Shown piece by piece: positions 21,343 to 35,672 of a DNA stretch of 44,669 bases. The DNA comes from Pseudomonadota bacterium (GTDB lineage Bacteria > Pseudomonadota > Alphaproteobacteria > GCA-2731375): the NCBI GenBank assembly GCA_027623205.1, contig JAQBYC010000031.1, positions 1 through 44,669 on the forward strand. The letters are read 5' to 3'. Positions within the stretch are counted from its first letter, which is position 1; each line of letters opens with the position of its first letter. The notes beneath the pieces are model-generated. The model was not told the DNA's origin and ran no database searches. It saw nothing but the letters and a program-made list of their open reading frames with translations. The position numbers and the translations under genes are program-made.

Positions 21343-21478
21343 ATCAATCCTCCCTTGTGATTTTTCGTGGCTTATCCGCCTTTAATTTGTTTGTCGCGAA
21401 TTGTATACCATTATCTTCACCGACCGGTGGGGAGGAATTCGAAAGCGGGCAGACGAACGTACCATGCCTATCCGGTTG

Positions 21479-22522
21479 CTACCCATGACCACTAGCAGTA
21501 GTCGGGTGCTCCCACTCGCCAGAATATAGGTCGGCGTATGTCGGGGAAGCCACTTCGCCGCCGATCCCAAGCAATGATCGAAAAGCGTTGAACGGATAGA
21601 AGCGCCGATTGAACCGGAACGTGAATTCGTTGAGGTAGGCTTGCAGGTGCTTCGGGCTGACGCCGTGGTGGCAGCCACGCAGCCAGCTTTTCAGGTTGGA
21701 AAAGATCAAGTGGACAATCGGCAGGTACTCTTCGGCGACGGCAGGATCGCTGCCCTCGACCACGGGAAGATGATCGTAGCCAAGTTGAGTCAGGCCGCCG
21801 TAGCTTGCCCAATCGTCGGTTATGACCATCGTGCCCGGCGCAACGGCGCTTTCCACAAATCCGCAGAGCGACTCAGCGGTTCGATTAGGCACCACCTCTA
21901 AACGGAGCCGTCCTGCATAGCGCCCGCCCCGGCGGGGAACGGCCGTGCCCCGGCCCTCCGGCCTGCGCTGGCGAACCTCGATCGCGCCCACGACGAGCGT
22001 TTTGTGATGCGTCCCCCGACCTTCGCCGCGCGTGGCGCCACCAACCCATGTCTCGTCGAGTTCGACATGATCCTCGGGATTGCCGCCGATCCGGTCGCGG
22101 TCGGGACGGACCATGCCGGCGCGCAACTTGTGAAGAATTTGGAAGGCGGTTTCATAGCGGGTCAGTCCAAGCTGCCGCTGGAACTGTACCGCCGACATGC
22201 CGGGCGTCATGCTCGAAACGAGATATGCCCCCCAGAACCACGTCGAGAGCGGCGTGCGGGTGCGCGCCATGACCGTCCCTGCCGTTAGCCTTACGTCCCG
22301 CTTGCAGGCTCGGCAGCGCAGGACGCTGGGCCTAGCTGCAAAGCGGTACGGATCGCCTGTGGCACCGCACCAGGGGCAGTTAAAGCCGTCCTCCCAGCGG
22401 ATTTTCTCCAGATAGGCGGCGCACGCCGCATCATCGGGGAACAGGCGCTGGAACTGCGGCAGGGAAGTCGGGAAAGGGAGCGCGGCTCGCTGGTGAATGT
22501 CGTCTATAGGGGTCCTAAGCAT
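21479..22522 (-). CDS. IS1595-family transposase (ISXO2-like)
   Basis: The protein has 347 residues from MLRTPIDD at 22522; an in-frame ATG seven codons earlier lies inside the upstream gene. An N-terminal zinc ribbon (CPWCGA, then RCRACKRDVRLTAGTVM) is followed by the ISXO2-like catalytic domain: HVELDETWVGGATRG with the first Asp, MVITDDWASYGGL with the second, then HLIFSNLKSWLRGCHHGVSPKHL and LNEFTFRFNRRF. The gene looks intact. Its start codon overlaps the stop of the HEPN-like gene by 8 bases, implying coupled translation. Confidence 0.9.
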   Translation of the reverse strand: MLRTPIDDIHQRAALPFPTSLPQFQRLFPDDAACAAYLEKIRWEDGFNCPWCGATGDPYRFAARPSVLRCRACKRDVRLTAGTVMARTRTPLSTWFWGAYLVSSMTPGMSAVQFQRQLGLTRYETAFQILHKLRAGMVRPDRDRIGGNPEDHVELDETWVGGATRGEGRGTHHKTLVVGAIEVRQRRPEGRGTAVPRRGGRYAGRLRLEVVPNRTAESLCGFVESAVAPGTMVITDDWASYGGLTQLGYDHLPVVEGSDPAVAEEYLPIVHLIFSNLKSWLRGCHHGVSPKHLQAYLNEFTFRFNRRFYPFNAFRSLLGIGGEVASPTYADLYSGEWEHPTTASGHG

Positions 22523-23372
22523 GAGGCTTTCCGTCCTCGTCAATGCGTGAAGCGATCTTTTTCATGAAAAAGCAAACCGCTGTGAATATGTGCCCGGCCT
22601 CCTCCTCCGTATATTTTCTTTCGACATGCATGGTAGCGTTTCGCCAAGGATTGCGGATCGCATCTAAGGTGACATAAACCTCCTCGAAAAAAGCCTTGTC
22701 CCCGGGGCCTGACCAAGCTGGCCTTGTTTTGATGGCTTCGTCTATTTTCCGTAAGAAGCTGCCCCAATTCCGCCCTGCCGGTTTGGCCGGCTTTGTTATT
22801 TCCAAACATTGCGCGGTGGCCTTCATCCCAATTTCCATCGCCCGCATCAGATGAAATACAGCGGCCGTCGGACGGCTAAACGCAATGCACATCGCGGCTT
22901 CATCCAATTCGTAAATAGATGACGGCATGGAGTCCCGAATGTCTGGACCAAAAAACTGCTCCTGACACAATACGAATTTTGTCTTCTCCGACTCTATTAC
23001 ATAAACCAATTTGGAGCAGAGTTCGTCCCGAAGTCTCTGATCTAGCTCCCCTACGCTTCTCATGAAACTGTTGTAGGTTATGTCGGAGCTACCAAACTTA
23101 CTGAGAAGGCGGGCTGCCGCCAAGCTGGTCAAGCCCGCTTCCATGCTTTTCAAATGTTCTTGGAGCGTCTGGAGAAGCCTAACAACAGCGTCCTTGTGTT
23201 TCGCGGACATTGCCGAAGCATCGTTCTTCTTGGCACCGTGGGTGAGCGCCTGCAGTGCTCTTAAGCTAGACGCGGCGCCATAAAATGCGGCGGCGTTCAA
23301 TTCCAGCATTTCCAACAGTTCCAAGAAATTACGGGGGAGCGCCTTTCTGCACCCCGCATCGGCAGTCAACAT
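22515..23372 (-). CDS. HEPN-like protein coupled to the transposase
   Basis: Possible ATG starts lie at 23408, 23372 and 23309, none with a strong ribosome site. 23372 is used because 23408 lies on or outside the proposed element edge. The protein has about 285 residues, helical throughout, with no signal peptide. The C-terminal third reads VFHLMRAMEIGMKATAQ, then NWGSFLRKIDEAI, and RNPWRNATMHVERKYTEEEAGHIFTAVCFFMKKIA. RNATMH fits the R-x4-H RNase motif of HEPN domains, with a polar residue after Arg, between two helices as expected. HEPN proteins act in toxin and phage-defence systems. That this one does so is inference. It could be a cargo gene of the IS1595 element. Confidence 0.7.
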   Translation of the reverse strand: MLTADAGCRKALPRNFLELLEMLELNAAAFYGAASSLRALQALTHGAKKNDASAMSAKHKDAVVRLLQTLQEHLKSMEAGLTSLAAARLLSKFGSSDITYNSFMRSVGELDQRLRDELCSKLVYVIESEKTKFVLCQEQFFGPDIRDSMPSSIYELDEAAMCIAFSRPTAAVFHLMRAMEIGMKATAQCLEITKPAKPAGRNWGSFLRKIDEAIKTRPAWSGPGDKAFFEEVYVTLDAIRNPWRNATMHVERKYTEEEAGHIFTAVCFFMKKIASRIDEDGKPHA

Positions 23373-23410
23373 AGATGTGGTAGCTTTGGGTGTCAAACGG
23401 ATAAGCATGA

Positions 23411-23884
23411 ATTATTGCTCTATCTATAGGTTGGCTTCTTTCGGCGTGCCAGACCACTACCGGCAGAACAGGCGGATCTGACATAAAGCAGCCTCCAAAT
23501 GCGGCTTCAGCAAAGTCCCCAGGGGCCGAAAGGCAAAATTCTTCCCGTGACGGCACTAGCAGAAAACTGAGCTCTATTGCCGCGCTCGACGGGGAATGGA
23601 AATGGGAAATGAAGTTACCCAGCTCCCCCTGCGACAGCATGACCATGATGCCGATGTGGATACAGAATGGTCGCGTGCAGGCCAATTTCAGTCACCCCGC
23701 GGCCGGGAGTTTCGTCCTTTTCGGCGATGTAGCGGCGGACGGTTCCGTCGTCATGTTCGCCGCCGCCGACCATCTGCAATTCAGCTTCACGGGCGTTTTT
23801 GGTCCGGACAGCGCGAGCGGTGAAACCAGTGGAACAGGCGAGACCAACTGCGACGGAACCTGGTCGGCAACAAAGAAACCTTAG
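23411..23884 (+). pseudogene. Lipoprotein gene without a normal start codon
   Basis: A frame open from 23411 to 23884 encodes a lipoprotein signal (IIALSIGWLLSAC, lipobox LSAC), then a low-complexity linker and a compact domain: LDGEWKWEMKLPSSPCDSM, IQNGRVQANFSHPAAGSFVLFGDVAADGSV and NCDGTWSATKKP. The paired Cys and GTW/GEW ends look like a small lipocalin-like beta-barrel. The frame begins with ATT ATT. An ATG at 23406 would join it only by a one-base slip. The proposed element edge falls here, so the true start was probably lost by insertion. An internal ATG (23609) would give only a signal-less fragment. Function unknown. Confidence 0.65.
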
Positions 23885-24053
23885 CTGAATGCCCGCGCTG
23901 TGCGTCCCGGGTCCTCCGGACGATCACCCAAAGATGGCATGAGATAGCCGTAATCAGATGGCGGCCCCCTATGTCGCCAGCTCAATAGGTCAATCCGGCC
24001 TGGGCAACGATCCCGACGATCATAAGTAGGTTCAGTATCGGGGGTAAAATAGG

Positions 24054-24531
24054 TTGAAGGGTAACCGGCACCGACCGATCACCTACACCGATCAGCCTGC
24101 CGGTGCGGTTACCGGCCAATTGAAGGGTAACCGGCACCAAAGGCGTCACCGTTTCCATGCAATCCCTGGGTGCGGTTACCGGCCAATTGAAGGGTAACCG
24201 GCACTCTGTGCGGAGAAACCAGTTGTCGCCGATGGGTGCGGTTACCGGCCAATTGAAGGGTAACCGGCACTATAGATTTTTGCTTCCGTCATTGTGTTAT
24301 GGTGCGGTTACCGGCCAATTGAAGGGTAACCGGCACAATGTGCTTGTCGAGTACCGGAATCTTGGCGGTGCGGTTACCGGCCAATTGAAGGGTAACCGGC
24401 ACTGAGGGGAACGAATGACTGAATACCTTATAAGGTGCGGTTACCGGCCAATTGAAGGGTAACCGGCACCCTGGCCATGATCATCGACCACCCGCGCCAG
24501 GTGCGGTTACCGGCCAATTGAAGGGTAACCG
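24054..24531. CRISPR. Orphan CRISPR array, 8 repeats and 7 spacers
   Basis: The repeat is 36 bases, beginning GGTGCGGTTACC, with centre GGCCAATTGAAG and end GGTAACCGGCAC. Its ends are inverted repeats and can pair with one bulge. Full copies start at 24102, 24169, 24235, 24301, 24367 and 24434 and are identical. The first copy keeps only its last 18 bases (24054-24071). The last, from 24500, departs from the consensus after 32 bases. Spacers are 30, 31, 30, 30, 30, 31 and 30 bases, all different. No cas gene lies in the window. A 36/30 layout is seen in type II arrays among others; the subtype and the leader side cannot be decided from sequence alone. Confidence 0.93.
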
Positions 24532-24776
24532 ATCAAAAGTCCGCCGCGCAAGGTTATCCCAGCGCTCAGTACAACCTTGGTGTCATGTATGACGAGGGGC
24601 GCGGCGTGCCGCGGGACCTTGTGAAAGCCCATTTATGGTACAGCATGGCCGGTGACAACGGCATTCGGGGCGGCAATTTGAAAAAGGCATCAATTGAGGA
24701 GGAAATGACCACCGACCAGCACGCCGAAGCCCAGAAGCTGGAACGGCGCGGGAGAGCGCTTCGCGCCGGAGACTAA
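24531..24776 (+). pseudogene. Truncated Sel1-repeat protein joined to the CRISPR array
   Basis: The reading frame emerges from the last CRISPR repeat as DQKSAAQGYPSAQYNLGVMYDEGRGVPRDLVKAHLWYSMAGDNG, a classical Sel1-like (TPR-type) unit with its AQYNLGxMYxxGxGVxxD pattern. It ends in a charged tail (MTTDQHAEAQKLERRGRALRAGD). Sel1 proteins normally have several repeats and an export signal, and these upstream parts are missing. An ATG at 24585 exists but would start inside the repeat unit. The loss of the 5' part coincides exactly with the point where the last CRISPR repeat departs from consensus. Confidence 0.7.
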
Positions 24777-24832
24777 CCGGCAACGGTAAATCAGGCGAAA
24801 CGCGAGGCGATTCCGATCAATTGAAAATGGCT

Positions 24833-26728
24833 CTAGGTGCGGACCTTGTCTGAAATTGCGTCTTGCTGCATGTCCTCGGGTATGTCGTCGAACGATGCGT
24901 AATTTAGCGCATAGAGCCTGGCGTAGAGACCGTGGCGCGCAATCAGCGCCTCATGAGTTCCGGTTTCGACGATGCGGCCTTCCTGTAGGACAATGATACG
25001 ATCCGCGCCGCGCACCGTCGCCAACCTGTGGGCGATGACGATGCCGGTGCGGCCTTCGAGCAGCCGGGCCAGGGCGATCTGGATCTGGCGTTCCGTGTAG
25101 CTGTCGATATTCGCCGTCGCCTCGTCGAGGATCAGGATTTTTGCGTCGGCCACCAGCGCCCGGGCAAAACTGAGAAGCTGGCGCTGTCCCAGCGAAAGGT
25201 TGCGCCCCTGCTGATTAAGCATGGTGTCGTAGCCATCAGGCAGCTGTACGATGAATTCATGGGCGCCGACCACCTTTGCCGCCATTTCCACATCTTCGGG
25301 CGTCGCGCTCAAAGTGCGGTAGCGGATGTTCTCGAAAATTGTCCCGGAAAAGAGGAAGGGATCCTGCAACACCATGGCGATGTGCCGGCCGAGGGACGCC
25401 TTGGCGTAATCGCGGACGTCGCGTCCGTCTATCGTCACGGCGCCGTCCCAGACATCATAGAAGCGATGCAGCAGCGCGGTGACCGAGGTCTTGCCGGAAC
25501 CGGTGGGGCCTACCAGCGCGACGGTTTCACCGGTTTTTACCGCGAAGCTTATATTTCTCAGCACCGGTTGGTTCTTTGTGTAGCCGAAGGTAACCGCATG
25601 GAACGCGACATCGCCGTCGATAGCGCCCGGGTCGGCTGCATTCGGCTTGTCGGCGATGGCGAGAGGAACCTCAAGCACTTCGAAGATGCGTTGGCCGGAC
25701 GCCATTGCGCGCTGCATGACGCTGTACTGGACCGTCAACGAACGGATTGGATCAAAGAACCGTTGTACGTAGAACAGGAAGGCGACCATGATGCCGATGT
25801 CCAGCGCATCATCAAGGACCATGGCGCCGCCGACCACCACCACGATCCCCATGGCCGCGCCGGTCAGGGTATCGACAATGGGTATCATTGCCTGCGCGAA
25901 TTTCGCCGAGCGAAGATGGGCTGCCAGGTTTTCTCGGGCTTTGTCCTCGTACAGGGCGGAATTGACGGCTTCGCGTCCCATCCCCTGCACCGTCCGGACC
26001 GCATGAATGCCTTCGGCCAGGGCGCCGTTCGTAATCGAGTTGGTTTCGCGAGCGCGGCGGAAAGCGAGACGCGCCCGCGGCAACCAGATCAGGCGGACAA
26101 TAAGCAGTATCGGAACGACTGAAAGGGTCAAAAGACCAAGTTCGAGATCCAGTATCAGCATGATGGCCACGATGCCAAATAGGAGAACGAGGTCGCCGAT
26201 CGCGGTAATCGAATTCTCGAGAAACTCCTGCAATGAATTCACGTCACCCTGGAGCCGTGACATCATGCGGCCGATCTCGGTTCTATCCATGAAGGCGAGC
26301 GCAACATGCTGCAGGTGGACAAACATTGCGCGGCGCAGGTCAAAAATCACATGTTCACCAGTCAGGCCGACCAGGCGGTCCTGTAAATAGCTTGCCCCGT
26401 AGTTGACGATGATCACGGCGCCGAAAGCGGCGATCGCAAGCGTCAACGATGTCCCACTCCCGCCTTCCACCATTAACGCCTGGTCGATCACGTAGCGGAT
26501 GATCAGCGGGATGGCGAGCTGGGCGCAGGTAAAGACCAGCACCGCGGCAAGCGCCAGGTAGATCCGATGCCGGTAAGGCCGCACATAGGTGACGAAACGG
26601 CGCATGACACGGCCGTCGAATGCGGCGCCGAACATTTCTTCGTCCTGGCTGATCTGCGAGCCGACGACGGCGCGCGGTGGCCGCGCGGTGTTTGGCTTGG
26701 ATCGCCCGGCGCCCGAAGAACCTGTCAT
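24833..26728 (-). CDS. ABC exporter half-transporter, second subunit
   Basis: The protein has 631 residues, with six transmembrane helices at about residues 60-340 (YLALAAVLVFTCAQLAIPLIIRYVIDQAL at the first) and a C-terminal ATPase: Walker A GPTGSGKTS, signature LSLGQRQLLSFARAL and Walker B ILILDEATANID with the catalytic Glu. The signature has Leu in place of Gly. Its ATG overlaps the stop of the partner gene by 4 bases, so the two form a heterodimeric exporter of the MsbA/multidrug type. The catalytic Walker B here belongs to the competent site. The substrate is unknown; lipids or drugs are typical. Confidence 0.88.
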   Translation of the reverse strand: MTGSSGAGRSKPNTARPPRAVVGSQISQDEEMFGAAFDGRVMRRFVTYVRPYRHRIYLALAAVLVFTCAQLAIPLIIRYVIDQALMVEGGSGTSLTLAIAAFGAVIIVNYGASYLQDRLVGLTGEHVIFDLRRAMFVHLQHVALAFMDRTEIGRMMSRLQGDVNSLQEFLENSITAIGDLVLLFGIVAIMLILDLELGLLTLSVVPILLIVRLIWLPRARLAFRRARETNSITNGALAEGIHAVRTVQGMGREAVNSALYEDKARENLAAHLRSAKFAQAMIPIVDTLTGAAMGIVVVVGGAMVLDDALDIGIMVAFLFYVQRFFDPIRSLTVQYSVMQRAMASGQRIFEVLEVPLAIADKPNAADPGAIDGDVAFHAVTFGYTKNQPVLRNISFAVKTGETVALVGPTGSGKTSVTALLHRFYDVWDGAVTIDGRDVRDYAKASLGRHIAMVLQDPFLFSGTIFENIRYRTLSATPEDVEMAAKVVGAHEFIVQLPDGYDTMLNQQGRNLSLGQRQLLSFARALVADAKILILDEATANIDSYTERQIQIALARLLEGRTGIVIAHRLATVRGADRIIVLQEGRIVETGTHEALIARHGLYARLYALNYASFDDIPEDMQQDAISDKVRT

Positions 26729-28647
26729 GGCGCCGCTCCGTTCATGGTAGATGAGGGGAGGCCCGTATCGTCGCGGCTCTGCAGTGCGAACAGCGCGGCA
26801 TATCGTCCACCCTGCAGAACGAGGCTATCATGGGTGCCGCGCTCGACGATGCGGCCCGCCTCCAGAAAAACAATTTCGTCCGCGTGCCGCAACGCGCCCA
26901 GTCGATGCGAGATGATGATCGTGGCGCAGCTTTCCATCTGCGTTTTGAGTGATTCGCGGATCCTCTGCTCGGTTTCAGCATCAATCGCCGCGGTCGAATC
27001 ATCGAACACAAGCACGGTGGCGGGCAGCATCGCTGCCCGCGCAATCGCGATCCGCTGCTTCTGTCCACCGGACAACGAAACGCCGCGCTCGCCGACCAAC
27101 GTGCCATAGCCATCCGGCAACCCGCCGACGAAGCCATCGATCTGCGCTGTTGATGCGGCGTCCTGGATCATGCTGTCATCGGCCCATGGATCACCATAGG
27201 CGATATTGTTTTCCAGCGATGCGGTGAACAAAAAGGCATCCTGTTGCACGACGCGCACCGCCTGGCGCAGGGTGTCGAGCGTCGCATCGCGAATATCCTG
27301 GCCGTCGATGGTGATGCGACCGCTGCTGGGGTCGTAATAGCGCGGCAGAAGATGCGCGATCGTCGACTTGCCACTACCAGGCGGGCCAACAATGCCCAAG
27401 GTTTTGCCGCGTGCCACGGTGAACGAAACGCCATGCAGCACAGGCGGCAGGCCGGCGCCGGTATGGCTGCCGGAATAGGTAAATGATACGTTTTCGAACC
27501 GGATTGTTCCGTCTGTTGGGTCAAGCGGCCTGGCGCCCACCCGGTCCTGGATGGCTGGTTCGAGATCGAGCAGGGCGAACAGGCGCCCGCCGCAGGTGGA
27601 CGCCCTGGCAATTGAATTCACCAGCAAGCCCAATTGGCGCACCGGTTGCTGCAGTATGGTGATGAAAGTGAGGAAGACGGTCAACTCGCCAATCGTCATG
27701 GCGCCCTCTAGGACGCGCAATCCGCCGACCCACAGGACCAGGCCCATGGCGATGAAATATGCGAAGGTCATGACGGACGTGGAGGCGGCGCGGGTTTTGA
27801 TCCGTTGGTCCGCGATTGCCATCGCCGCATCCGAGGCTGCGTCGAATTTACTGATTTCATAAGGTTCGGCGCCGAACGCCCGAACGACGCGGATGCCAGC
27901 CAGGTTTTCGTCCATGATCTGGCCGAGCATTCCCATCCGCTCCTGCAATGCCAGCCACAGCGCCCGCAAACGCAGCCGTGCCACCGACGAACACCAGGCG
28001 ACAAAGGGCACGAAGGCGAAGCTTAGCGTGCCTAAAAGCAGATCAGCCGATAGCAGCAGATAACCGCCGCCGCCGATCAAATTGACGAGCAGGACCAGCC
28101 GCAGCAAGCCGGTGTTGATGAACATGCGGACGCCCTCGAGATCCAGCATGCCCCGGGTAATCAATTCACCACTATGGATGCGATCGTGAAAGGAAAAGCT
28201 GAGCCTTTGTAGCTTGCGGTAAAAGGCCAGCCGAAGATCGTAGGCGATTAGGTGCCCGATCGCCTCGCCGCCGTAGTTGTGCAGCAACGTGAACCCGCCG
28301 CGCAGCACCGAGGCGCCGAGCAGCAACAGTGCCGCCTCGAACAGGGCGCCGCGCGCCGCCTCGGGCGTGATCGATCCACTGCCCAGGAGGCCAAGCGCGT
28401 GATCGACCGCGGTGCCGAGAAAGCGCGGGATCATCAGCTGGAAAATGGCCGCCGCGATCGTTGCCCCGACGGCGAGGGCAACCCGGCCGCGATAGCGAAG
28501 CGCCAGCCGGACGATCCGCCACAGCACGGCCGCGTCGTTGCCGATGCGGTGGTCGGAAGCCTCCGACATTCCTTGATAGGCTTTTTGCCTCAGTGTGATC
28601 GCGCCGTCCGGCAGCCCGCTCGATTGTTCCGCCCTACCTTCCGCCAT
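26725..28647 (-). CDS. ABC exporter half-transporter, first subunit
   Basis: The protein has 640 residues from the ATG at 28647; MSEASDHRIG at 28569 is an alternative start. Six transmembrane helices are followed by an ATPase with Walker A GPPGSGKST, signature LSGGQKQRIAIARA and Walker B VLVFDDSTAAID. The residue after the Walker B Asp is Asp rather than the catalytic Glu. Together with the LSLGQ signature of the partner, this builds one degenerate and one active ATP site, as in heterodimeric bacterial exporters such as TM287/288. The two genes overlap and are the only members of the operon visible. Confidence 0.88.
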   Translation of the reverse strand: MAEGRAEQSSGLPDGAITLRQKAYQGMSEASDHRIGNDAAVLWRIVRLALRYRGRVALAVGATIAAAIFQLMIPRFLGTAVDHALGLLGSGSITPEAARGALFEAALLLLGASVLRGGFTLLHNYGGEAIGHLIAYDLRLAFYRKLQRLSFSFHDRIHSGELITRGMLDLEGVRMFINTGLLRLVLLVNLIGGGGYLLLSADLLLGTLSFAFVPFVAWCSSVARLRLRALWLALQERMGMLGQIMDENLAGIRVVRAFGAEPYEISKFDAASDAAMAIADQRIKTRAASTSVMTFAYFIAMGLVLWVGGLRVLEGAMTIGELTVFLTFITILQQPVRQLGLLVNSIARASTCGGRLFALLDLEPAIQDRVGARPLDPTDGTIRFENVSFTYSGSHTGAGLPPVLHGVSFTVARGKTLGIVGPPGSGKSTIAHLLPRYYDPSSGRITIDGQDIRDATLDTLRQAVRVVQQDAFLFTASLENNIAYGDPWADDSMIQDAASTAQIDGFVGGLPDGYGTLVGERGVSLSGGQKQRIAIARAAMLPATVLVFDDSTAAIDAETEQRIRESLKTQMESCATIIISHRLGALRHADEIVFLEAGRIVERGTHDSLVLQGGRYAALFALQSRDDTGLPSSTMNGAAP

Positions 28648-30886: not shown

Positions 30887-31391
30887 AATCGGGGCAAGGC
30901 GGTTCGGGTGGAAAGGTTGGCCGGCACCAACCGTGACGCCATTGACCCATATCAATACCCTCTGTGCCAAATTGTTCTATTGGTGGAACATGGCGTGGTG
31001 TATTCAGTCATTGGGTGGCTACTGCGCCGGCACGGAATGGAGGCGGGCGCCATGCGGGGAAGCCACTTGATAGAGGCGATGCCGATCGAAGACGTCGCTT
31101 CCGAGAGAGTTGTCAGGACAAATTTTTGCCCACGCGACGGCCGTCGGATTTCGGTCATATTCGCAATGTCTGGCGGAGCTGTTCCCGCGCGCGCCGGTGT
31201 CGCTCTCTGCCCTTTGAATACCTACAGCGACTTGTTCGACCCGCCGCTCGGGGGCAGTCCGTGCGATTTGGCCTGTTTGTCAGCAATCGGCGGATAGGCG
31301 TCCAGTTGGCGTCAGGTGGGTTCCGAAGTTTATTTAGGGGAAGGTTACAAAAAACCAAACATGGGGAGAGCGAAAACATAGGAGATTGAAC
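30887..31391. other. Intergenic stretch with no convincing gene
   Basis: An open frame runs through part of this stretch (about 30857-31297, plus strand), but it begins inside the hairpin, lacks a ribosome site and resembles no family I recognise. It could be the remains of a lost gene. The end of the stretch provides the ribosome site (AGGAGATTG) of the following activase gene. Confidence 0.5.
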
Positions 31392-34300
31392 ATGCGAATT
31401 GCGGGCTGCGATCTGGGCAAGGCTTCGGCGGGCTTCGTCATCGCCACGGTGGGCAAAGACGGCAGGCTTGAAGTGGAACGCTCGGACTACGAGTTGCACG
31501 ATGGCGACCCTCTCGGACTGTTCAAACAATGGTACCGTGACAACGACGTCGGCTCCTGCGCTGCTTTGGCGGCGACCGGCGTCAATGCAGACGAGTTGCG
31601 GGACCCCGCCCTGATCCTGCCGGAGGATTCCTGCCAGGAGGCCGCGCTCGAAATTTTCCCCGACCTGGAAGACACCCTGAACCTTGTCTCTATCGGCGCC
31701 CGCGGCTATGGCGCGCTAAGCCGCAAGCCGGCTGATGGCGGAGGCAAAGGCACAGCTGTTGGCAGTGGGCCGAAATTTCACTACCAATATCTTGAGAACG
31801 ACAAATGCTCGTCGGGCACCGGCGAAAATATCCAGAAGATTGCCGACCGTTTCGGTCTGGGCATCGTGGACGCGGACAAGGCCGCGCTGGCAGCCGACGT
31901 GGCCATCCCCATAACCGCCCGCTGTTCCGTCTTCGCCAAGAGCGAGATGACTCACTTCGCCAATCAGGGCAAGCCGACAGGCGCATTGTTCAAGGGCTAT
32001 TTCGGGTCGGTGGCGCGCAACACTCAGTCGCTGCTGGCGCGCAATCGGGTCGATGGCCCGGTTTACCTGATGGGCGGCCCGGCGCGGATCGAGTCATTCC
32101 GCCGCTCATTCGAAGAGATCCTGGGCGAACCGGTCAAGGTGCCGCCCCTTGCCGAATGTTTCGAAGCCCTCGGCGCCGCGGCCATTGCTGCCGAACAGGC
32201 GCGAAAATCCTCACTCGCGCCCTTGCCCGCTGATCCGTCGGAACTGATCGCCCCCGTCGAAAGCCGATTTCAGGTACTGGAAGCAGCCAGCGGCTGGCAG
32301 GACCGGGTGACCATGATGGCGGAGCCTGAAATCCCGGCCGGCGCCGCCGAAACGCCCACCATTCTTGGCCTCGATCTCGGTTCCACCGGGGCCAAGGCGG
32401 TGCTGACCTCGATCGAGACCGGTGAAATTGTACTTGACGTATATGACAGCACGCGGGGCAATCCGGTCGATGCCGCCCGCCGCCTGGTCGGTACCATCCT
32501 GAACCAGGTCAAAGCCGACGTGCGCGCCATCGGCGTTACCGGATCCGGCCGCGAAGCCGTGGCGACCCTGCTGCGCGCGGTCTATCCCGAAAGTGACAAT
32601 GTCATCGTGCTGAACGAGATTGTTGCCCATGCCACCGGCGCGGCGCGTTGTGATGTCGATGGCGGCGCCGATCTGTCGGTGATCGAGATTGGCGGTCAGG
32701 ACGCCAAATACATCCGCGTCCAGGGTGGCCGTATCGTCGAAAGCGACATGAACAAGGCGTGCAGCGCTGGGACCGGCTCGTTCCTGGAAGAACAGGCGAC
32801 AATCTATGACGTCGACGATATCCAGGATTTCGTCGACCTGGCGTCCTCCGCCAAGCGTCCACCAGACCTGGGCATGATGTGCACGGTTTTCGTCGCCGAC
32901 GCCGCGGCGCTAGCCATCAAGGAAGGCTTCGGGCGCGACGACATCTTTGCCGGCTTCCAGTATTCGGTGATCCATAACTACCTGAACCGCGTGATGGGTC
33001 AACGCACACTGGGTCAGCGGGTCTTCTTTCAGGGCAAGCCAGCCTCCAATCCCTCGCTGGCGTGGACCCTGGCGGCGGTCACCGGGCGCGAGATCGTGGT
33101 GCCGCCCAATCCGGGCGCCATGGGGGCCTGGGGGATCGGTCTTTGCGCCGTGGAGCAGTTTGGCCGGCAAGGGCTGGCAACGGCGCCCCGGCTTGAACTC
33201 GGCCTGATCTTGGCAGCGGAGATTACCGGGCGGGCGGAATTCCAGTGCCGCGACGCACAATGCCAGACGCTTTGTCCCATCGAGCGCACCACCATCAAGG
33301 TCGGCGGGATCAGCCGTCAGGCTGTCTCGGGCGGCGCCTGTCCCAAATTCGAAGTCTCGACCAAGAGCCAGCCGAAGCTTGCCAAAGAGGCGCCGAACCC
33401 CTTCGAACAGCGCGAGGCGTTGATTGACAGTTTTGTGCCGGCGCCCAACGACGGGCCGGTGCTGGCCATCCCCGCGGTCAGTTCACTTGCCCCGCATATT
33501 CCTTGGCTCGCCACCTTTGCCGGCGAACTTGGCTTTTCGGTAAAGATTCTACGCTCCGACAGGCATTCGCTGGCGGCCGGCGAACAGCTTTGCAACAGTT
33601 TCGATTCCTGCGGCCCGGTAAAAATCGCCCATGCGGTCTGTGACGTCGATGTCGATCTGCTGCTCTTTCCCTCCATATTCCACATTGCCGACACCAAGGG
33701 ACGCGGCGGCCAGACCTGCGTCACGGAACAGGTCATGCCCTCGCTGGTGAAGCAGCTGCTCCGCTCCCGGGGCAGGAGGACCAGGCTGGTGCGGCCGCGG
33801 CTCTCGTTTCGCGAGGGGCCGGGGGCAGCGGAACTAAGCGTCGAAATGATCCGGTTGGCCAGCGAACTTGGCGTCGATCCCAAAAACATTCAAGCGGCCG
33901 TGGCCAAGGCCGCCGAAGCCCATCTCGCCTATGAAGACGGGCTCGAGCGCATTGGCGAAGAGGCACTGGAATATGCCCGGGCCAACAACCTGCCCAGCGT
34001 CCTGCTGCTGGGCCATCTGCACGTTATCTGCGATCCCGCCATCAACGCTAATATCCCGCTGTTGCTAAGGCGCAACGGCGCCATGGCCATCCCGGCGGAT
34101 TGCTTTCCGATCGATAGCCGGACGCCGCCGATGAAGAAGATCTATTGGGGTGACGCCAACCGCGCCATGCGCGCGGCGATCCATGCACGCGGTCTTGGTG
34201 ACGTTTTCCCGGTGCTGCTCGCCTCCTTCGGCTGCGGGCCGTCCTCGTTCACCGAGCAGGTTTTCCAGTCCCTGCTGGAGGGTTATCCACACACCATCCT

Positions 34301-35672
34301 GGAAAGCGACGGTCATGGCGGCGAGGCCGGTTTCGTCACGCGCATTCAGGCCTTCCTGCAATCGGTACGGCAATACATTACCGCGGGTGACGCCCGCGCG
34401 CTGCCCGATAACGCCAAACGAATCTCGTATCTCAGTCCACCGCGGAAAAGCCGCTCCAGTTTTCTTGATCCCGACGTTCACTACGTGGCCATGAGCATGG
34501 CGGAGAATGTCGGGCCCACCTTTGCCGCCACCTATCGCGCCTATGGCTACGACGTGGTGAGCGCCCCGGGCCACAGCGACAGCACCTGGCAGGCCGGCAA
34601 GGCCGACTGTTCGGGTAAGGAATGTCTCAGCTATCAGTTGATGTGGGGCGCCTTCCGCCAGCACCTGGAGCAGAACCCGCCGACAAAGGATACCGTGCTG
34701 CTGGCCTTCTCGGGTCAGTTATGCCGCACCGGCGCCTTTGGGGTGAAGGACCAGATTTCGCTAGAGAAAATGGGCCTCGATAACAACGTGACCATGCAAG
34801 GCATGCCATTCGGCGGTGATCGGTCCATGTCGTTGCTGTTGTGGGCGGGGCTTTCGGCGATCGAGATTCTGCGCCAGTTCTATATTTACCATCTGCCGGT
34901 GGAATCCCGATCTGGCGAGTCCCGGGCGCTCTATGATGCCGGTATCGCGCGGGTTATAGCCATCCTCGAGGCGCCCATGGCCGCAACCGAAAGCGACAGT
35001 GCCCGGCCCGAGGTCGAGCACCGCGCCCTGGCCATCGCCGCGGCGCTGCGCGAGAGCGGACGGCATTATGCCGAGATGGATAACCGTTGGCAGGGAAGCC
35101 GCGCTTTCCGCACCGTCTTCGTCGGCGGTGAGACCATGGCCAAGGGCAGTGATTTTTCCAATTCCGGCCTTTTCCTGCGGCTCAGCGAACAAGGCATGCG
35201 GCTGGTACTGGAACCCCTGACCGACTTCTTTGAATTTCTGGCCCGCCGCCACCCGCACCTCCAATACGGCCGGGCCAAGCCGTTGGCCGAGGCCCGGGCG
35301 ATGACCGAGGAACAGGCCGCGTTACGGACCTGGCTGTACGCGGAGATGGCCGAACTCCATCCCTGGCTGCCGGCGCCGGCGGTCGAGGAGGCCCTGGACC
35401 TGGCCGAGGCACTGATCGACCCGGCGACGGTTGGCGGCTCGCCGATGGAAATAGCCAGCGTCGTGCATGCCTGGGACACCGGCCGCTATGACGGCGTCGT
35501 CGTGGCCAGTTGCTGGGGTTGTGACAACAGCCTGATTACCGAAGGCCTGTTGCGCTATCGCAAGGAGATTCCATTTTTCTTCTATTACGGCGATGGCACG
35601 CCCTTGGACGAGCGCCGGGTACGCGGCTTTTCCTACCGTCTGCGCCGGGGCGCGGAGTCCACGGCTGCATAG
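31392..35672 (+). CDS. Two-domain acyl-CoA dehydratase activase (BadF/BcrA type)
   Basis: The protein has 1,426 residues. ATG 31392 follows AGGAGATTGAAC; an in-frame TTG two codons earlier is less likely. It has two ASKHA ATPase domains in tandem. The first (about 1-280) has GCDLGKASAG, DKCSSGTGENIQKIADRF (Cys near 139) and ARCSVFAKSEMTHF. The second (about 320-590) has GLDLGSTGAKAV, GGQDAKYIRV, NKACSAGTGSFLEEQA (Cys near 456) and MMCTVFVADAAA. These Cys match the [4Fe-4S] ligands of 2-hydroxyacyl-CoA dehydratase activators. A Cys cluster (QCRDAQCQTLCP) and a DUF2229-type region follow. Such proteins couple ATP hydrolysis to low-potential electron transfer. The partner dehydratase is not in the window. 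Confidence 0.88.
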   Translation: MRIAGCDLGKASAGFVIATVGKDGRLEVERSDYELHDGDPLGLFKQWYRDNDVGSCAALAATGVNADELRDPALILPEDSCQEAALEIFPDLEDTLNLVSIGARGYGALSRKPADGGGKGTAVGSGPKFHYQYLENDKCSSGTGENIQKIADRFGLGIVDADKAALAADVAIPITARCSVFAKSEMTHFANQGKPTGALFKGYFGSVARNTQSLLARNRVDGPVYLMGGPARIESFRRSFEEILGEPVKVPPLAECFEALGAAAIAAEQARKSSLAPLPADPSELIAPVESRFQVLEAASGWQDRVTMMAEPEIPAGAAETPTILGLDLGSTGAKAVLTSIETGEIVLDVYDSTRGNPVDAARRLVGTILNQVKADVRAIGVTGSGREAVATLLRAVYPESDNVIVLNEIVAHATGAARCDVDGGADLSVIEIGGQDAKYIRVQGGRIVESDMNKACSAGTGSFLEEQATIYDVDDIQDFVDLASSAKRPPDLGMMCTVFVADAAALAIKEGFGRDDIFAGFQYSVIHNYLNRVMGQRTLGQRVFFQGKPASNPSLAWTLAAVTGREIVVPPNPGAMGAWGIGLCAVEQFGRQGLATAPRLELGLILAAEITGRAEFQCRDAQCQTLCPIERTTIKVGGISRQAVSGGACPKFEVSTKSQPKLAKEAPNPFEQREALIDSFVPAPNDGPVLAIPAVSSLAPHIPWLATFAGELGFSVKILRSDRHSLAAGEQLCNSFDSCGPVKIAHAVCDVDVDLLLFPSIFHIADTKGRGGQTCVTEQVMPSLVKQLLRSRGRRTRLVRPRLSFREGPGAAELSVEMIRLASELGVDPKNIQAAVAKAAEAHLAYEDGLERIGEEALEYARANNLPSVLLLGHLHVICDPAINANIPLLLRRNGAMAIPADCFPIDSRTPPMKKIYWGDANRAMRAAIHARGLGDVFPVLLASFGCGPSSFTEQVFQSLLEGYPHTILESDGHGGEAGFVTRIQAFLQSVRQYITAGDARALPDNAKRISYLSPPRKSRSSFLDPDVHYVAMSMAENVGPTFAATYRAYGYDVVSAPGHSDSTWQAGKADCSGKECLSYQLMWGAFRQHLEQNPPTKDTVLLAFSGQLCRTGAFGVKDQISLEKMGLDNNVTMQGMPFGGDRSMSLLLWAGLSAIEILRQFYIYHLPVESRSGESRALYDAGIARVIAILEAPMAATESDSARPEVEHRALAIAAALRESGRHYAEMDNRWQGSRAFRTVFVGGETMAKGSDFSNSGLFLRLSEQGMRLVLEPLTDFFEFLARRHPHLQYGRAKPLAEARAMTEEQAALRTWLYAEMAELHPWLPAPAVEEALDLAEALIDPATVGGSPMEIASVVHAWDTGRYDGVVVASCWGCDNSLITEGLLRYRKEIPFFFYYGDGTPLDERRVRGFSYRLRRGAESTAA

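What the first reader, a model, noticed from the sequence alone, without database searches (positions are those of the whole stretch)
24054..24531. CRISPR array without cas genes, truncated at both ends
Six identical full repeats, plus an 18-base partial first and a 32-base partial last, separate seven unique spacers. No cas genes or convincing leader lie within about 20 kb on either side. Identical repeats suggest recent activity or use in trans with a cas locus elsewhere. Broken outer repeats suggest the array was moved or cut out of a larger locus.
Basis: partly seen in the sequence, partly recalled or inferred. Interest (0 to 1): 0.6.

Follow-up and report, generated by a model that had tools for sequence, protein, structure and literature searches.

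The report
Cas-less CRISPR array remnant
This is a genuine but short CRISPR array (seven stored spacers) stranded in a bacterial genome in which none of the core CRISPR protein families searched for was found; one end is fused into the middle of an unrelated gene, so it is most likely the leftover of a CRISPR system lost in a DNA rearrangement, which is an ordinary kind of find.

Summary
No cas-type gene was found in the proteins tested in the 44.7-kb contig. In the whole assembly (5.02 Mb, 97% complete) Cas1, Cas9, Cas12f/TnpB-type, RAMP and true Cas3 matches are absent, and the repeat occurs nowhere else. Use in trans with a cas locus elsewhere in this genome is therefore not supported, though unassembled sequence and untested effectors remain possible.

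New evidence backs the 'cut out of a larger locus' idea at the right edge. The last repeat stops at 24531; from 24532-24536 the DNA is the C-terminal quarter of a Sel1-repeat gene that is intact (336 aa) in a genus-mate. There the homologue of the array's other flanking gene lies on the same contig, same orientation, 8.9 kb away, with no array between. Two genus-mates carry type II-C cas9-cas1 systems with similar 36+30 geometry, but the window's repeat matches theirs only weakly. Neither repeat nor spacers have a convincing match in any collection searched.

Best reading: an orphan, probably inactive CRISPR remnant with an otherwise unseen repeat. Interest is low.

The parts
24054..24071 (+). 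partial left-hand repeat: last 18 nt of the 36-nt repeat; the preceding 18 nt show no repeat similarity (3/18 by eye)
24102..24469 (+). six identical 36-nt repeats (24102, 24169, 24235, 24301, 24367, 24434) with five spacers of 30-31 nt between them; the strand of transcription is undetermined
24072..24101 (.). spacer 1 (30 nt)
24470..24499 (.). spacer 7 (30 nt)
24500..24531 (+). partial right-hand repeat: first 32 of 36 nt, then abrupt change to Sel1 coding DNA
24532..24776 (+). C-terminal fragment of a Sel1-repeat protein gene without start or N-terminal part (PF08238, E 2.8e-11); 69% aa identity over 71 aa to the end of the intact 336-aa gene of genus-mate G002
23418..23884 (+). left-flank gene, a lipoprotein-like protein (LLSACQTTTG...DGEWKWEMK...) whose start appears to be cut off by the adjacent IS element; 77% nt identity over 355 bp to a gene on the same G002 contig as the intact Sel1 gene
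21462..23417 (-). IS1595-family element: transposase 21479-22543 and a second ORF 22515-23408; its ends recur at other contig edges of the genome
24833..26728 (-). ABC transporter gene conserved in genus-mates; DNA similarity to them stops at about 24820-24870, just right of the Sel1 fragment

Best explanation
It is an orphan CRISPR array: the surviving part of a CRISPR-Cas locus, most plausibly class 2 and perhaps type II-C by its 36+30 geometry. A rearrangement removed the cas genes and leader and joined the array's right end to the inside of a Sel1-repeat gene. Without Cas1 it cannot gain spacers, and with no effector detected it is probably inert; any transcript would be a pre-crRNA without a partner. 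Shown: array anatomy, absence of the tested cas families and of a second copy of the repeat in the assembly, and the fusion to a decapitated Sel1 gene. Inferred: that a cas locus once adjoined it, the deletion step, the subtype and the present inactivity.
For: Exact regular array. No match to Cas1, Cas9, the Cas12f/TnpB domain or RAMPs, and only sub-cut-off helicases for Cas3, in a 96.94%-complete genome. No other copy of the repeat with up to 3 mismatches. The right edge breaks a Sel1 gene that is intact in G002, with similarity beginning at 24536, within 4 bp of the last repeat base. The left-flank gene's homologue lies upstream on the same G002 contig, 8.9 kb away, with no array between. 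Genus-mates G003 and G010 hold II-C cas9-cas1 with 36-nt repeats and 30-nt spacers, so such systems occur in this lineage.
Against: The repeats are all identical, with no decay inside the array. No leader or cas debris remains to show that a locus once stood here. The window repeat is only weakly like the II-C repeats of relatives (about 14 of 36 positions on average in either direction, against 13-28 among those repeats), lacks their GCTA near the 3' end, and scores equally well in both orientations. The assembly is not complete.
Confidence: 0.68

Rival explanations
1. The array is functional and served in trans by a cas locus that sits in the unassembled part of this genome or on a plasmid that was not binned.
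For: Perfectly identical repeats suggest recent upkeep. The genome is a 228-contig draft, 96.94% complete. The II-C loci of both genus-mates lie at contig edges or on a tiny contig, so they assemble badly.
Against: No cas1 or cas9 fragment was found at all; no second array with this repeat; no leader; both outer repeats are broken, and the right edge abuts a broken gene.
Confidence: 0.2
2. Assembly chimera: the array's position between the two flanks is a mis-join in a short-read draft, and the real array lies elsewhere, possibly next to cas genes.
For: Both outer repeats stop abruptly. The contig also holds an IS whose other copies end at contig edges, so the assembler had to resolve repeats in this region.
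Against: The two flanks have homologues in the same order and orientation on one contig of G002. GC of the array (56.5%) equals that of the flanks (57%). No other copy of the repeat exists in the assembly that could cause a mis-join.
Confidence: 0.08
3. The array has a live but unrecognised effector unlike Cas9, Cas12f, Cas3 or type III proteins.
For: The repeat has no relatives in any collection searched, and no tested cas family accounts for it.
Against: No candidate gene lies nearby; the neighbours are ordinary transport and metabolic genes plus an IS. The array is damaged at both ends.
Confidence: 0.04

Closest known systems
Orphan (cas-less) CRISPR arrays, as surveyed on plasmids and chromosomes (PMC9071438)
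   Same: A short array with no cas genes. That paper reports orphan arrays as common and on average 39% shorter than cas-linked ones, and cites the suggestion that they are remnants of decaying systems.
   Different: Here the breakpoint is visible: one edge lies inside a gene that is intact in a relative. The repeat itself has no match in the collections searched.
Type II-C CRISPR-Cas of Alphaproteobacteria, including genus-mates G003 and G010
   Same: 36-nt repeats with about 30-nt spacers; partial similarity at the repeat's 5' end (GGTGCGGTTACCGGCC against GTTGCGGTTGG...).
   Different: No cas9, cas1 or leader; the repeat lacks the GCTA(A/T) 3' end and has an 11-bp palindrome spanning it; two spacers are 31 nt rather than 30.
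E. coli CRISPR4-type orphan arrays with anti-cas spacers (cited in PMC9071438, reference 87)
   Same: An orphan array in a lineage whose relatives carry cas systems.
   Different: No spacer here matches the cas genes of G003 or G010.

Membership tests
CRISPR array | near-identical repeats of about 25-40 nt at regular spacing | tested here: met
   six identical 36-mers, period 66-67
CRISPR array | unique spacers of uniform length | tested here: met
   seven unrelated 30-31-nt spacers
CRISPR array | spacers matching mobile elements | tested here: inconclusive
   no convincing match in phages or plasmids; no exact 20-nt cores of six of the seven spacers in viral contigs; none in own genome beyond chance
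CRISPR array | AT-rich leader next to an intact first repeat | tested here: not met
   both terminal repeats broken; flanks 40-45% AT
Complete CRISPR-Cas system | cas genes in the genome | tested here: not met
   no Cas1, Cas9, Cas12f/TnpB, RAMP or true Cas3 match in the assembly; Cas13, other Cas12 families and type IV not tested
Type II-C | Cas9 of subtype II-C with Cas1 and Cas2 | tested here: not met
   no Cas9 or Cas1; Cas2 was not searched for
Type II-C | 36-nt repeat of II-C sequence type | tested here: inconclusive
   more similar than shuffles (p about 0.002) but equally so in both directions and less than most true II-C repeats are to each other
Type II-C | tracrRNA anti-repeat | tested here: inconclusive
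   no anti-repeat above chance in the window and no repeat-like match over 13 nt in 1.45 Mb of the own genome; whole genome searched only at up to 3 mismatches over 36 nt and by blastn

The most novel reading that the evidence does not exclude
The repeat belongs to a so far undescribed CRISPR subtype whose effector is none of the families tested and is encoded elsewhere in this genome, so the array would still be in use.
Probability: 0.04. Interest if true: 0.65.

Novelty: new member of a known kind. Interest (0 to 1): 0.2.

Why it matters
It gives a clear example of how an orphan CRISPR array can arise: the break is caught inside a gene that is still whole in a relative. The repeat has no counterpart in the roughly 85,000 genomes or the phage, plasmid and viral collections searched, so it would be a useful tag for finding the parent system if that turns up in metagenomes.

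Tried and rejected
Coding tandem repeat: rejected, stops in all frames; a real coding repeat elsewhere in the genome (L218:5459 onward, 63-bp period) looks quite different. Related repeats by the palindrome motif in tandem: 6 viral and 18 genome hits, none a CRISPR of this kind. Spacer targets: phages, plasmids, viral contigs, own genome and relatives' loci, nothing above chance. Anti-cas spacers against genus-mate cas loci: none. Rfam match: none in 22000-27000. Array DNA in 191 relatives and repeat in 385 class genomes: own genome only. Homology of the flanks with II-C loci of relatives: only chance-level hits. Missing N-terminal part of the Sel1 gene in the own genome: not found in the 1.45 Mb sampled, and the rest could not be searched. 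Repeat letters in the literature: no relevant paper.

Full report
Observation. The array at 24054-24531 is exactly as described: six identical copies of GGTGCGGTTACCGGCCAATTGAAGGGTAACCGGCAC, the last 18 nt of the repeat at the left end, its first 32 nt at the right end, and seven unique spacers of 30, 31, 30, 30, 30, 31 and 30 nt. All six frames contain stops. The repeat forms an 11-bp hairpin with a 12-nt loop (-15.2 kcal/mol). This is a CRISPR array.

Genome context. The window is a whole contig (C66) of a draft genome of 5.02 Mb in 228 contigs, 96.94% complete. The repeat occurs nowhere else in it with up to three mismatches. Cas1, Cas9 TIGR01865, the Cas12f/TnpB domain PF07282 and RAMP proteins give no match. 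The Cas3 core model finds only matches below its cut-off, read here as ordinary helicases. Cas13, other Cas12 families and type IV proteins were not searched for. Twenty of the window's larger proteins match no CRISPR model of PADLOC; the 'mad3/mad8' hits of the two ABC transporters are read as generic ATPase matches.

Relatives. Two genus-mates carry type II-C-like cas9 and cas1 (G003:C301, G010:C10), with 36-nt repeats and 30-nt spacers. The subtype name rests on the small Cas9 (about 1,050-1,100 aa), the cas9-cas1 order and the repeat form; it was not tested with a subtype model. The window repeat has the same geometry and a partly similar 5' end, but mean identity to eight alphaproteobacterial repeats of this kind is 14.25/36 forward and 14.4/36 reverse (shuffled mean 8.9, p about 0.002 for both), against 13-28/36 among those repeats. 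Because the repeat is palindromic this does not settle orientation or subtype. The exact repeat is absent from about 85,000 genome species, IMG/VR and, by similarity, from phages and plasmids. The array DNA is absent from 191 relatives (only three candidates per genome were scored), and the repeat from 385 class genomes at up to 3 mismatches. A looser tandem-palindrome pattern found no related CRISPR.

The edges. The right edge is a real breakpoint. From 24532-24536 on, the DNA is the C-terminal part of a Sel1-repeat gene (PF08238) with 69% aa identity over 71 aa to the end of an intact 336-aa gene in G002 (L119:12537-13547). Nucleotide similarity starts at 24536, equivalent to about codon 257 of 336, within 4 bp of the last repeat base. 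The missing first part is not upstream of the array, where no Sel1 reading frame exists. The left-flank gene (23418-23884) also has its homologue on the same G002 contig, in the same orientation, 8.9 kb upstream of the equivalent point, and no array lies between them there. No G002 sequence matches the 170 bp between that gene and the array. The left partial repeat has no trace of its missing half, so it is either a natural degenerate end or a second breakpoint. On the other side of the left-flank gene an IS1595-family element appears to have removed that gene's start, and similarity to genus-mates ends just right of the Sel1 fragment. This is therefore a rearranged stretch.

Spacers. No convincing protospacer was found in cultured phages or plasmids (best E 0.5 and 5), in viral contigs using exact 20-nt cores of six spacers, in the own genome, or in the cas loci of genus-mates. 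For an environmental alphaproteobacterium this says little.

Explanation. The most economical reading is a remnant: a CRISPR locus once stood here, a rearrangement removed the cas genes and leader and fused the array to the inside of the Sel1 gene, and the array has not yet decayed. Shown: anatomy, lack of the tested cas families, and the fusion. Inferred: the former cas neighbour, the deletion event, II-C affinity and inactivity. The chief rival is an array still used by a cas locus missing from the assembly; an assembly chimera and an unknown effector are less likely. Literature describes orphan arrays as common, shorter than cas-linked ones and possibly remnants of decaying systems (PMC9071438). 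The find is ordinary in kind; its unusual points are the unmatched repeat and the legible breakpoint.

Noticed in passing
window 21462-23417: IS1595-family element with transposase and a second 297-aa ORF without a Pfam match overlapping it; about 70 bp of its ends recur at the edges of other contigs (C208, C48, C29, C216), so several copies probably fragment this assembly.
   Followed up: partly
window 23418-23884: Lipoprotein-like gene that seems to have lost its start to the IS; in G002 the homologous C-terminal domain (DGEW...) follows a Sel1-type N-terminal part instead, so the domain may be shuffled between N-termini.
   Followed up: partly
L218:5459-5906 (G000:C219): A 63-bp period coding tandem repeat (DKALAEPQ..., 8 copies) that mimics a CRISPR in a k-mer scan but is an open reading frame.
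   Followed up: yes
window 31386-35672: A 1428-aa ORF that reads like a fused 2-hydroxyacyl-CoA dehydratase activator and BcrA/BadF-type ATPase protein (judged by eye only).
   Followed up: no
L106:15650-15740 (G010:C10): The II-C-like array of genus-mate G010 has a degenerate terminal repeat (GTTGCGAGTTGCGCTAAAGTCCGG...) next to a stretch that looks tRNA-like by eye; its cas9 runs off the contig end.
   Followed up: no
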